Origin: Sandaracinus amylolyticus
GTDB taxonomy: Bacteria; Myxococcota_A; Polyangia; Polyangiales; Sandaracinaceae
Length of the DNA: 64,000 bases
Assembly (NCBI RefSeq): GCF_000737325.1
Contig: NZ_CP011125.1
Coordinates: forward strand, 310,001 to 374,000
Direction of reading: 5' to 3'
In this document: positions 3,125 to 48,045 of the stretch, piece after piece
How the letters are laid out: every line of letters starts with the position of its first letter
Position numbering within the stretch: position 1 is the first letter of the stretch
Notes under the pieces: model-generated
Seen by the model: the letters and a program-made list of their open reading frames with translations, nothing else
The model's database searches: none
What the model was told of the DNA's origin: nothing
Made by a program: the position numbers and the translations under genes

Positions 3125-3322
3125 TCACGTCTCGCGGCCGAGCTTGCGCCGGGCGACCCGAACCGCGCGCGCGAGCGTGACCACGCAGGGATCGCACGAG
3201 CTGCCGCAGCACGTCGTGGGGTCGGGCGGCGCGTCGAGGTGGGTCCGCACCATCTCGCGCTGGGTCTCGCGCATCCCGGTCGCGCGCAGGGCCTCGGTGA
3301 TCGCACCGTCGACGTCGTCCAC
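3125..3322 (-). CDS. Small oxidoreductase-like domain protein (CCxSxCxxC motif)
   Basis: A 65-residue protein with a GTG start (bases 3320-3322). Its core, PPDPTTCCGSSCDPCVV, matches the short Pro-rich plus CCxSGCxxCV pattern of the oxidoreductase-like N-terminal domain, which is found as a small stand-alone protein in many proteobacteria and at the start of some eukaryotic reductases. The four cysteines could bind a metal or form disulfides; the role is unknown. It sits downstream of the MBL-fold gene on the same strand with a 97-nt gap and abuts the convergent DUF488-like gene. The assignment rests on the motif. Confidence 0.65.
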   Translation of the reverse strand: MDDVDGAITEALRATGMRETQREMVRTHLDAPPDPTTCCGSSCDPCVVTLARAVRVARRKLGRET

Positions 3323-3419
3323 GGGCGCGAAGCTCCCACGTGCGCGCGCGCGAGCAAGCGGTCGTGTCGCGGCGCGCCTCGCGCGAGCGACGTGCCGCGG
3401 CGGGGCGCGTCGCTCGCGC

Positions 3420-4250
3420 TCACGCGTGGAGCGGCTCGGGCATCGGCGGCGGAGCGGGCGCGAGCATCCGCGCGAAGGCGGGCTGGTCGGGCCCGACGAA
3501 CGGCGGCGCGGAGTGGGCTGCGCGCACGTTGTCGAGCAGCGCGTCGAGGATGCCGAACGCAGGCGGCAGGTGCGTGCTCAGCACGCGCTCGGGCGCGAGC
3601 GCGCGCACCGACGAGAGCGAGCGCTCGAACACGGGCGTCTCGAGCGCGCCGAGCCACGGCGAGTCGATCGTCGCCCACGTCACCTCACCCTCGCGCAGCG
3701 CGTTCCCGCCGAGCTCGTTCGCGCTCTCCACGGGCTTCGAGAGCACGGCGCCGAAGCTGTCCGACGAGAACAGCGTGCGCGTGCTCGGGTCGAAGAACGC
3801 GGTCGTCTCCGGCGCGTCGTAGGTCGGCGGCCGCAGCGCGAGCAGCTCGCGATCACCGACGTCGAGGCTCTGTCCGGGGTTGAGCAGGAACACGCGCTCC
3901 GGCGGGATCGGTCCGTAGAGCCCGAGCTTGCCGAGCCCGAGGAACGTGGTGACGAGCCGCGCGTCGGGCGCCTCGGCGAGCACGTCGCGCAGCGCGCCGA
4001 TGTGATCGGGATCGGCGTGAGTCAGCCAGATCCACCGCAGATCGCGAGGATCGATCGCGGCGCGCACCGCATCGAGGTACGCGGCCGAGCCCGCGACGTA
4101 CCCGGTGTCGACGAGCACCGGCTCCTTCGCGCGCAGGACGAACGCGTTGATCGGCACGAGCCCGAGGCCCGGCACCGGATAGAACGACGAGAGGATGTCG
4201 ACGTCCGCGCCGATCGTGCGCGGCGTGATCTTCTGAATCGGCTCGAGCAC
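3420..4250 (-). CDS. MBL-fold metallo-hydrolase
   Basis: A 276-residue metallo-beta-lactamase-fold protein. The start is a GTG at 4250, preceded by a clear GGAGGTG Shine-Dalgarno, although the frame stays open far upstream. The metal site is LTHADPDHIG with first ligand His78, an HxDxDH variant of the usual HxHxDH. A later Asp (FFDPSTRTLFSSDSFG) and His (LSTHLPP) supply further ligands. The layout of a buried N-terminal sheet (VLVDTGYVAG) before the metal motif is like that of the oxygen-reductase/FprA-type MBL domain, but there is no flavodoxin part. The substrate is unknown. It lies 50 nt downstream of the ferritin-like gene on the same strand, so the two may be co-transcribed. Confidence 0.85.
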   Translation of the reverse strand: MLEPIQKITPRTIGADVDILSSFYPVPGLGLVPINAFVLRAKEPVLVDTGYVAGSAAYLDAVRAAIDPRDLRWIWLTHADPDHIGALRDVLAEAPDARLVTTFLGLGKLGLYGPIPPERVFLLNPGQSLDVGDRELLALRPPTYDAPETTAFFDPSTRTLFSSDSFGAVLSKPVESANELGGNALREGEVTWATIDSPWLGALETPVFERSLSSVRALAPERVLSTHLPPAFGILDALLDNVRAAHSAPPFVGPDQPAFARMLAPAPPPMPEPLHA

Positions 4251-20106: not shown

Positions 20107-20184
20107 CCGAGAATTCACCGCTGAGAGCACGGAGGGCCGCAGAGGAGAGCGAACCTCTCTGCGGCCCTCTGCGGTGAATCTCGG
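20107..20184. repeat. 78-bp nested palindrome downstream of the MpaB-type gene
   Basis: Two nested inverted repeats. The outer arms are 20107-20121 and 20171-20184, 14 of 15 bases paired with one bulge. The inner arms are 20132-20145 (GAGGGCCGCAGAGG) and 20154-20169, about 13 pairs. The RNA would form a very stable hairpin, but no T-run follows, so it is not a classic terminator. It may be a Rho-independent-like stop, a mobile palindromic repeat, or both. It begins 18 nt after the MpaB stop codon. Confidence 0.75.
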
Positions 20185-45846: not shown

Positions 45847-46779
45847 TCAGCGCGGCACGCAGCGATCCGAGACGCATCCCTCGAAGCCGTGCGCGACGCA
45901 GTCGTACGCACGACGCACGCCGTCGTGGCCGCAGTACTCGATCACCCCGTCGCGGCACGAGCCCCCGCCCGAGCCGCACTCGGCGTCGTCGGGCGCGACG
46001 CAGCCCGCGCCGAGCGTGCCGAACCCGCGACATCGCATCCCGAGCGCAGCGCAGTCGATCGGGCCCGCCGTCCGACCGCTGATCGGCTCGCACGGCACGA
46101 ACACGTCTCCCTCGCACGTCTCGCGGGTGCACGCTGCGCCCGCGCCGACGCACGTGCCCGCGGTCTCGGAGCACTCCGAGCCGGCACGGCACGTGCCGGT
46201 GGTCAGCACGCCTCCCGAGCACGTCGTGAGCGAACGACCGTTGCACGTCGTGACGATCGCGTCCGACGGCGGGCAGGTGCCGAGCGCGCAGCGAGGGCTC
46301 CCGTCGGTCGACGCCACGCACACCAGGTCGTGCACCGCGCACGCCTGCCGCACGCGCATCCGCGGCTCACCGAACGCGCCACCGCCGGTGCAGAAGGTCA
46401 CCGCGTCCTCGTCGCAGCGTGGTGCGAGCTCGCACGTCTCCACGACCTCGATCGTGAATCCGAGGCACTCGCGGACGCGCTCGCAGTCGCCGCCTGCGCG
46501 CACGACGCAGACGATCTGATCGTGGTTCATTCCGAACGAAGGCCCGAACGAGTAGAAGGGCCCGCCGATCAGGAGCTCCTGTGCGACGAGCCCCACGAAC
46601 GAGCCGGACAACGTCTGCCCTCCGCCGAGGGACACTGGGACGCACGCGCCGAGCGCTGCCACGAGCTGCTCCGCGGTCTCGGCGCGAGTGAGCGCCGGCG
46701 TGGACGGCCCGCACGAGATCGCGACCGGCATGAGCAGACAGACGAGCCATCGAGCGGAGCGTGGGAATCGGGCGCGCAT
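45847..46779 (-). CDS. Cys-rich lipoprotein
   Basis: A 310-residue lipoprotein: signal peptide LVCLLMPVAISCG, then a first domain of about 130 residues with three Cys pairs and a Gly-rich stretch (GGPFYSFGPSFGMNHDQIVC). Next come four or five repeats of about 45 residues, each with four Cys, of the kind CNGRSLTTCSGGVLTTGTCRAG, CEGDVFVPCEP and CRDGVIEYCGHDGVRRAYDC. These resemble the Cys modules of other myxobacterial surface proteins. GGAGGA precedes the ATG. It converges with the M23 gene (11 nt apart). Function unknown. Confidence 0.8.
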   Translation of the reverse strand: MRARFPRSARWLVCLLMPVAISCGPSTPALTRAETAEQLVAALGACVPVSLGGGQTLSGSFVGLVAQELLIGGPFYSFGPSFGMNHDQIVCVVRAGGDCERVRECLGFTIEVVETCELAPRCDEDAVTFCTGGGAFGEPRMRVRQACAVHDLVCVASTDGSPRCALGTCPPSDAIVTTCNGRSLTTCSGGVLTTGTCRAGSECSETAGTCVGAGAACTRETCEGDVFVPCEPISGRTAGPIDCAALGMRCRGFGTLGAGCVAPDDAECGSGGGSCRDGVIEYCGHDGVRRAYDCVAHGFEGCVSDRCVPR

Positions 46780-46800
46780 TCGAGCTGATCCTCCGTGCGG

Positions 46801-46806
46801 TAGAGT
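46801..46806 (+). promoter_or_regulatory. Candidate -10 element (TAGAGT) of the ATL gene
   Basis: A TAnnnT box 5 nt before the ATG, with no Shine-Dalgarno between. It is closer than ideal for a leaderless start but fits the trend. It also faces the divergent lipoprotein start 22 nt upstream. Confidence 0.35.
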
Positions 46807-46811
46807 GTTGC

Positions 46812-47147
46812 ATGGCGAAGCCGCGCGCGCGTGATCCCGAGGAGACTCCGCCCTTCGAGCGGGTGCAGGCGCTGGTGAAGCGCATCCCGCGCGGGCGCGT
46901 CGCGACGTACGGGCAGCTCTCGCGGATGATCGACGGACGGCTCACGCCGGTGGGTGTGGGCTGGGCGATCCGCGCTGCGAGCGACGCGATCCCGTGGCAG
47001 CGCGTGGTCGGGGCGAAGGGACGCATCTCGACGGAGCGCGAGCATCCGGGGCTGCAGCGCGAGATGCTCGAGTCGGAAGGTGTGCGCTTCGACGACGAAG
47101 GGCGCGTCGACCTCGAGCGACACGGCTGGGAGCCGTCTGTGCGCTGA
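46812..47147 (+). CDS. Alkyltransferase-like (ATL) DNA repair protein
   Basis: A 111-residue member of the O6-alkylguanine-DNA alkyltransferase family. Parts kept are the helix-turn-helix with its minor-groove Arg finger (RVATYGQLSRMI) and VGWAIRAASDAIPWQRVVGAKG. The active-site Cys of PCHRV is replaced by Trp62 in PWQRVV. This is the hallmark of ATL proteins, which bind and flip alkylated guanine without repairing it and flag it for nucleotide excision repair. The N-terminal domain of Ada/Ogt is absent, as in other ATLs. The inverted-repeat element begins 11 nt after the stop. Confidence 0.92.
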   Translation: MAKPRARDPEETPPFERVQALVKRIPRGRVATYGQLSRMIDGRLTPVGVGWAIRAASDAIPWQRVVGAKGRISTEREHPGLQREMLESEGVRFDDEGRVDLERHGWEPSVR

Positions 47148-47157
47148 GGAGACTCTT

Positions 47158-47403
47158 GAGGAGAGCAGGAGGAGAAGGAAGACCACGTCGTGGTGCGTGC
47201 CTGTCGACTCACCGCGCGGACTTCTTCAGGAGAGCAGGAGAGTTCGGAAGACCACGTCGCGTGCGTGCCTGTCGACTCAACGCGCGACGAAGGCGCCAAC
47301 GAGAGTTGGTTGGTGCGCGTGCAGTCGAGTCGCACCACGGGGGCCCGTGCCGTGGTCTTCCTTCTCCTCCTGCTCTCCTCATCAATTCGTTCCTGCTCTC
47401 CTA
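47158..47403. repeat. Inverted-repeat element with internal direct repeats
   Basis: The ends are perfect 29-bp inverted repeats: 47158-47186 and 47352-47380. Inside are two direct copies of about 59 bp (47161-47219 and 47230-47288, offset 69 bp), each with GAAGACCACGTCG and GTGCGTGCCTGTCGACTCA. The purine-rich arm GGAGAGCAGG occurs again, inverted, at about 47391-47403, where it contains the DUF2267 stop codon. It lies between two convergent genes. It has the look of a non-autonomous mobile palindromic element or a duplicated bidirectional terminator. No open frame is supported. Confidence 0.8.
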
Positions 47404-48003
47404 GGTGCGTTTCGAGCGGCCTTCGGCGAGGGTGTCGTGCTGCTGCTCCTGGCGCGTGCCGTGCGCCGTCGACAGGCGCTCGTCGTCGTGCGCGACGCCC
47501 GTGACCGAGTCGACGTGGGCCGGTGGATGGTGCGCGCGCGCGAGCGGATCGTCGCTGCCGGGATGACCTTCCGAGAGCGTCGTTCTCGGATGCTCGTCGT
47601 GGTGCGCGACGGGCGGGGGCGCGAAGCGTCGCGGCTGGAGGAGGCGCACCACGCTCGGATCGAGCTCGGCCTCCGCGAGGCGCATCGTCTCGTCGTCGAG
47701 GTGCTCGCCGATCACCGACGCGACCGCGCTGAGGTGCTCGATCCCGAGCGCTGCGCGGACACCCTCGCGGCGCGCGGTGCGCGCGACGATCGCGCTCGCG
47801 TCGCCCCCGAGCTCGTGGCCGATCACCGCGCGCATGATCGTCGCGGCGCCCGGCGGGAGCGCCTCCGCGATGTGGTCGGCGAGACACCGCGAGCACGCCT
47901 CTGCGAGCACGCGCAGCGTGACGTCGATCGCACGATCCGCCTCGTCGGCGCCGAGCGGGCCCAGGCGCTCTCGCGCGAGCTCCCGGAAAGTCGTGTCGTC
48001 CAC
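47401..48003 (-). CDS. DUF2267-like protein with His-rich tail
   Basis: About 200 residues from the GTG at 48003 (an alternative start lies 33 nt earlier). The N-terminal 125 residues are helical and look like DUF2267: FRELARERLGPLGADEADRAIDVTLRVLAEACSRCLADHIAEALPPG (in overlapping parts) with the typical LxxxLP turn, then a second half-repeat. The last 75 residues are low-complexity and His-rich (HHDEHPRTTLSEGHPG, ARAHHPPAHVDSV), which may bind metal. The stop codon lies within the outer arm of the inverted-repeat element. Function of the family is unknown. Confidence 0.65.
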   Translation of the reverse strand: MDDTTFRELARERLGPLGADEADRAIDVTLRVLAEACSRCLADHIAEALPPGAATIMRAVIGHELGGDASAIVARTARREGVRAALGIEHLSAVASVIGEHLDDETMRLAEAELDPSVVRLLQPRRFAPPPVAHHDEHPRTTLSEGHPGSDDPLARAHHPPAHVDSVTGVAHDDERLSTAHGTRQEQQHDTLAEGRSKRT

Positions 48004-48045
48004 GAGGATCGACCTACGCCCCGATCGAGCGCACACACGTTCTGC

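What the first reader, a model, noticed from the sequence alone, without database searches (positions are those of the whole stretch)
47158..47403. Inverted-repeat element with 29-bp perfect ends and internal duplication
Arms 47158-47186 and 47352-47380 are identical inverted copies; inside are two 59-bp direct repeats with GTGCGTGCCTGTCGACTCA. The purine arm recurs a third time and supplies the stop codon of the DUF2267 gene. The structure looks like a non-autonomous mobile element or REP/MITE-like unit, placed between two convergent genes.
Basis: partly seen in the sequence, partly recalled or inferred. Interest (0 to 1): 0.6.

Follow-up and report, generated by a model that had tools for sequence, protein, structure and literature searches.

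The report
Dispersed hairpin repeat between convergent genes
This is one copy of a previously unnamed family of about 60 long hairpin-forming repeats scattered between genes of one myxobacterium and its closest sequenced relative; it resembles the REP/ERIC/MITE-type repeats of other bacteria, but no enzyme that moves it was found.

Summary
Two arms, 47157-47187 and 47351-47381 (31 bp, perfect), form the longest inverted repeat in the window; the next longest arm is 16 bp. The left arm is tandemly duplicated with 68-69 bp spacing. A short fourth copy overlaps the TAG stop of the DUF2267 gene. The element belongs to a dispersed family: ~56 arm copies in its own genome (probably Sandaracinus amylolyticus), 41 in a congener, none in five other genera of the family, and no exact match in GTDB r220 or IMG/VR. 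In all 28 clusters holding both orientations the arms face each other. Copies lie outside predicted genes, mostly downstream of them. Non-orthologous copies share an alignable ~160-bp interior (up to 81%), so the family spread by copying. The window copy sits at the same place in the congener, as a simple 160-bp doublet. Other loci are reduced to half-arms, minimal palindromes or nothing. No target duplication, RAYT or autonomous partner was found. Best reading: a new genus-restricted family of long imperfect palindromes, REPIN/ERIC-like, now mostly inherited vertically and remodelled by tandem duplication and deletion. Its RNA hairpins may cap convergent transcripts (not shown).

The parts
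47148..47403 (.). whole element: two left (A-end) arms, interior, right (B-end) arm, and a short extra core
47157..47187 (+). outer left arm (31 bp, perfect inverted match to 47351-47381); core AGGAGAGCAGGAGGAGAAGGAAGACCACG at 47159-47187
   Evidence: exact core also elsewhere in the genome
47223..47291 (+). second, degenerate left arm plus tail: tandem copy of 47154-47222 (68-69 bp spacing); absent from the congener's orthologous element
47193..47218 (+). A-end tail GTGCGTGCCTGTCGACTCACCGCGCG, repeated at 47261-47286
47293..47316 (+). central stem-loop GCGCCAAC-GAGAGTTG-GTTGGTGC (predicted)
   Evidence: also in the centroid structure
47318..47350 (-). B-end tail (read on -: GCACGGGCCCCCGTGGTGCGACTCGACTGCACG), homologous to the B-end of other full-length members
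47351..47381 (-). right arm; in the congener this arm carries the GTT variant, here AGA like the left arm
47391..47402 (-). short extra core AGGAGAGCAGGA overlapping the TAG stop (47401-47403) of the DUF2267 gene
46761..47147 (+). flanking gene, ATL/MGMT-like DNA-binding domain (PF01035); start codon not settled
47401..48036 (-). flanking convergent gene, DUF2267 (PF10025)

Best explanation
The element is a full-length member, with one extra tandem arm, of a genus-restricted family of dispersed intergenic long imperfect palindromes. Shown: (1) the canonical unit is two facing ~42-nt arms (consensus GGGAGAATTTCTGAGGAGAGCAGGAGG[GTT/AGA]AGGAAGACCACG) around an asymmetric A-end/B-end interior, ~160 bp core to core; (2) copies at non-orthologous places have homologous interiors, so they descend from one ancestor by duplication to new sites; (3) many copies, this one included, were in place before the two Sandaracinus species split; (4) since then loci have been remodelled by tandem duplication of arms (unit ~69-100 bp), loss of the interior and loss of one arm. 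Inferred: the spread used an IS/RAYT-like activity acting on the arm sequences, now lost or not recognised, or a host recombination process. Inferred: variant blocks (AGA vs GTT) switch at orthologous arms by exchange between copies. Inferred: when transcribed from either gene the palindrome forms a very stable RNA hairpin that shields or processes the 3' ends of the convergent mRNAs, as proposed for REP and ERIC repeats; this, and being tolerated there, would explain the downstream-of-gene bias.
For: Arm copies: 56 in own genome against 1 control match, 41 in congener G002, 0 in G001 and in five other genera of the family. All 28 clusters with both orientations are facing, 0 violations. No copy inside a predicted gene; convergent vs divergent contexts 11:3 in own genome and 13:2 in G002, against 13:12 for all gene pairs of the window. 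Interiors of non-orthologous members align at up to 81% (L033 vs L113). Orthologous occupancy at the window locus and at least 12 others with ~85-93% identical flanks. Core identity 0.915 between orthologs and 0.867 between cross-species paralogs, versus 0.65 for the outer 11 nt of orthologs: the core is held constant family-wide. Very stable fold.
Against: No TSD, no Y1/RAYT, no autonomous copy, and only one nearly clean empty site (L104/L150, without TSD), so active transposition is not demonstrated. Arms inside a doublet are no more alike than arms of different doublets, so there is no compensatory evidence that RNA pairing itself is selected. No transcript data. Gene calls outside the annotated pair come from my own codon-usage predictor.
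Confidence: 0.72

Rival explanations
1. Classical MITE: a non-autonomous transposon with 42-bp TIRs still or recently mobilised by a DDE transposase in trans.
For: TIR-like ends, small size, intergenic, same ends with several different interiors; presence/absence differences between species at several loci.
Against: No TSD signal above shuffles, no transposase gene bounded by these ends, window site shared with the congener, differing sites usually contain remnants.
Confidence: 0.2
2. REP/REPIN system moved by a RAYT (Y1 transposase).
For: Facing doublets forming hairpins, intergenic, convergent/unidirectional bias, stop codons supplied by the repeat, tandem clusters, singlets as remnants: all as described for REPINs/REPs (PMC3116915, PMC3733652).
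Against: No PF01797 in own genome or congener (controls positive); a single arm is not palindromic (alifold about -0.25 kcal/mol); no GTAG tag; arms in pairs not clearly more conserved than unpaired ones (0.844 vs 0.821 own, 0.858 vs 0.869 G002).
Confidence: 0.05
3. Local bidirectional transcription terminator or 3'-UTR RNA that evolved at each locus under functional constraint.
For: Between convergent genes, stable hairpin, orthologous site conserved in congener, minimal hairpins at some loci.
Against: No U-tract after either arm (sequence; one search finds only a chance-level site); sequence, not just structure, is shared with unrelated loci including at least 3 divergent-promoter loci; homologous interiors.
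Confidence: 0.12
4. Binding site array for a sequence-specific host protein (chromosome organisation, uptake signal, or CsrA sponge because of repeated GGA).
For: Core conserved in sequence but not covarying; shortest shared unit is AGGAGAGCAGGA, ~93 copies of AGGARRGCAGGAG in own genome.
Against: CsrA absent from the genome; spacing between facing arms is not fixed (51-222 bp between cores in full pairs, 0-60 in minimal pairs); copy number far below DNA-uptake signals (literature knowledge).
Confidence: 0.08

Closest known systems
REPIN / REP doublets (PMC3116915, PMC3733652)
   Same: Facing repeats forming hairpins, extragenic, mostly between convergent or unidirectional genes, tandem clusters, decayed singlets, repeat end supplies stop codons
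   Different: No RAYT in the genomes; single unit not palindromic; no GTAG tag; arms longer (~42 nt)
ERIC / intergenic repeat units of enterobacteria (reviewed in PMC10969869)
   Same: A hundred-odd-bp imperfect palindrome, intergenic, tens of copies, taxon-restricted, 3'-end effects on mRNA reported for ERIC
   Different: Different host group; here longer, with tandem arms and several interior types; sequence relationship not tested
Bacterial MITEs
   Same: Terminal inverted repeats, <300 bp, non-coding, shared ends with variable interiors
   Different: No TSD and no autonomous partner found
Intrinsic bidirectional terminators
   Same: Position and hairpin
   Different: No U-tract; sequence conserved genome-wide including at divergent promoters

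Membership tests
REP/REPIN | inverted doublets forming a hairpin, extragenic | tested here: met
   28 of 28 mixed clusters facing; all outside predicted genes
REP/REPIN | RAYT (Y1 transposase) in the genome | tested here: not met
   PF01797 0 hits in G000 and G002; control genomes positive
REP/REPIN | each unit is itself a 20-40 bp palindrome with GTAG or CGTC tag | tested here: not met
   No consensus stem within single arms; no GTAG in the consensus; CGTC follows CCA in only about half of the arms (T at core +29 in 56 of 97) and is not at the end
MITE | terminal inverted repeats, short, non-coding, multi-copy | tested here: met
MITE | target-site duplication | tested here: inconclusive
   No signal above shuffles for 2-9 bp in 28 clusters, but element ends are not sharply defined and copies are old
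MITE | autonomous partner with the same ends | tested here: not met
   No arm pair encloses a transposase; largest enclosed gene is a PDDEXK_3 (GxxExxY) ORF at L046
MITE | clean empty sites in relatives | tested here: inconclusive
   Differences exist, mostly remnants or minimal palindromes; L104/L150 nearly clean but no TSD
ERIC | sequence identity to the ~127-bp ERIC consensus | not tested
   Not aligned here; works-like comparison only
Intrinsic terminator | GC hairpin followed by U-tract | tested here: not met
   right arm is followed by CATCAATTCG, left arm (on -) by CAAGAGTCTC
Known Rfam RNA | match above gathering score | tested here: not met
   Only sub-threshold chance hits

The most novel reading that the evidence does not exclude
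The outer half-arm (TGAGGAGAGCAGGA) is a recognition site for an unknown, non-RAYT enzyme that copies or extends palindromes: several hairpin types with different interiors share exactly these ends, and the same intergenic site can hold a 24-28-bp perfect palindrome in one species and a 160-bp element in the other.
Probability: 0.12. Interest if true: 0.6.

Novelty: new member of a known kind. Interest (0 to 1): 0.33.

Why it matters
It adds an apparently undescribed interspersed palindrome family in a group (Sandaracinus, Myxococcota) for which I found none in the papers searched. It spreads or persists without the RAYT enzyme usually invoked for REP-type repeats, and two complete congeners give paired loci in every state from minimal palindrome to arrays, so the birth, growth and decay of such repeats can be followed directly.

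Tried and rejected
CsrA-sponge idea (many GGA motifs): CsrA absent. RAYT-mobilised REPIN: no Y1_Tnp. Rfam family: none. Selection on pairing within doublets: no excess within-pair identity or pairing over permutation. Inner hairpin within each arm (GGAAGACC..GGTCTTCC): present in only ~18 of 85 arms and no consensus stem. Phage origin: no match in viral contigs. TSD search: negative. Arms as ends of an autonomous transposon: no enclosing transposase; the DDE_5 transposase at L155 has its own, different ends and merely inserted next to a minimal palindrome. The distant-family search for the DUF2267 gene gave no usable orthologous intergenic region outside the congener.

Full report
OBSERVATION. 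The inverted repeat is real and slightly longer than stated: 47157-47187 and 47351-47381 are perfect reverse complements (31 bp). The next longest exact arm in the window is 16 bp. The 47150-47405 strand folds at -140.4 kcal/mol, z -7.4. The internal direct repeats are a tandem copy of the left arm and its tail (spacing 68-69 bp). The short core AGGAGAGCAGGA occurs four times here; the outermost (47391-47402, minus) overlaps the TAG stop of the DUF2267 gene. The neighbours are convergent: a PF01035 (ATL/MGMT-like) gene on + and a PF10025 gene on -.

IT IS A DISPERSED FAMILY. A BLAST of 281 bp against the own genome (10,327,335 bp, one contig; by size probably S. amylolyticus DSM 53668, 10.33 Mb in PMC5010890, an inference) gives more than 150 matching pieces in some 35 clusters. 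The arm pattern AGGARRGCAGGAGNNNNAGGAASRCCACG has 56 matches (<=3 mismatches; control 1) in the own genome, and 54 in it and 41 in the congener G002 (<=2 mismatches). There are none in the third genome assigned to the genus (G001, a fragmented 6-Mb assembly) nor in the five other genera of the family; two isolated hits occur in the rest of the order. There is no exact match in 84,980 GTDB r220 genomes other than near-own records, which that scan may leave out, and none in IMG/VR.

ANATOMY. Across 97 arms the conserved stretch runs from -11 to about +34 of the core: GGGAGAATTTCTG-AGGAGAGCAGGAGG-[GTT|AGA]-A-GGAAGACCACG-TCG. In 28 of 28 clusters with both orientations, + arms lie left of - arms. 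The commonest full unit is ~160 bp core to core; its interior is asymmetric (A-end GGTCTTCCTGTCGACTCACCGCGCG, B-end GTGGTGCGACTCGACT) and homologous between non-orthologous loci, up to 81% (L033 vs L113). The window element belongs to this subfamily. Related hairpins share only the outer half-arm and have other interiors.

LOCATION. No copy falls in a predicted gene; convergent:divergent contexts are 11:3 (own) and 13:2 (G002), binomial p 0.029 and 0.004 (many loci are orthologous, so the two tests are not independent). Gene pairs in general show 13:12 in the window. At least three loci are in divergent (promoter) regions, so a terminator role cannot be general.

HISTORY. The window locus is occupied in G002 by a simple 160-bp doublet; the own copy has an extra 69-bp tandem arm unit, and its right arm reads AGA where G002 reads GTT. 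At least a dozen other loci are occupied in both species. Loci that differ show intermediate states: own L061 has one half-arm where G002 L108 has an array; G002 L141 has GGGAGAGCAGGAAGCTCCTGCTCTCCC where own L041 has the longer form; own L155 has the perfect palindrome GAGGAGAGCAGGAATTCCTGCTCTCCTC plus a DDE_5 insertion sequence where G002 L113 has a full element; own L150 is nearly clean where G002 L104 has an array. No target duplication emerges. Which of the short and long states is ancestral is not settled by two species. Core identity is 0.915 for orthologous and 0.867 for cross-species paralogous arms, while the outer 11 nt of orthologs are 0.65 identical, so the core is constrained or homogenised across the family. 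Partners in a doublet are not more similar than random pairs, so the constraint is on the sequence, not demonstrably on pairing.

MECHANISM. Shown: dispersal by duplication (homologous interiors), vertical inheritance of this copy, local tandem growth and loss. Inferred: an enzyme acting on the arms once spread them, but neither RAYT nor an autonomous partner is present; exchange between copies maintains the core; hairpin RNA at the 3' ends of convergent transcripts is the likeliest effect on the host, as proposed for REP repeats (PMC3733652) and reported for ERIC (PMC10969869).

COMPARISON. It works like REPIN/REP and ERIC repeats but fails two defining REP features (RAYT, palindromic tagged unit), and the MITE features TSD and autonomous partner are unmet or inconclusive. 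I file it as a new, unnamed family of bacterial interspersed long palindromes, not as a member of any of these. Literature searches found no description of repeats in Sandaracinus; only open-licence papers are held.

Noticed in passing
L046 2840-3975 (own genome 2,174,839-2,175,974): A GxxExxY/PDDEXK_3 gene (3214-3714, -) sits between two tandem arrays: three ~95-bp left units of a related subfamily and three 88-bp right-arm units. The congener has neither the arrays nor this gene there, but another gene.
   Followed up: partly
L155 461-1940 (own genome ~148,760-150,240): An insertion sequence with a DDE_5 transposase lies directly beside a perfect 28-bp palindrome GAGGAGAGCAGGAATTCCTGCTCTCCTC, at the site where the congener has a full-length 160-bp element.
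   Followed up: yes
window 20132-20169; also inside L104, L043, L055, L117/L151 intergenic regions: A second dispersed hairpin repeat (GAGGGCCGCAGAG ... CTCTGCGGCCCTC type), unrelated to the arms, sometimes nested inside or next to the elements.
   Followed up: no
L128, L055, L058, L099 intergenic regions: A third short palindromic repeat, GTAGCGCTACGAATTTCGTAGC-like, recurs next to the elements.
   Followed up: no
L120-L139: A related family of shorter hairpins (arm GGAATTTCTGAGGAGAGCAGGAAGTTAGGAAGGCAGGAG, short loops) sharing only the outer half-arm, mostly within tens of bp of stop codons.
   Followed up: partly
G002 L105 / own L032 and others: The three-base block AGA vs GTT in the arm switches as a block between orthologous arms of the two species, suggesting exchange between copies.
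   Followed up: partly
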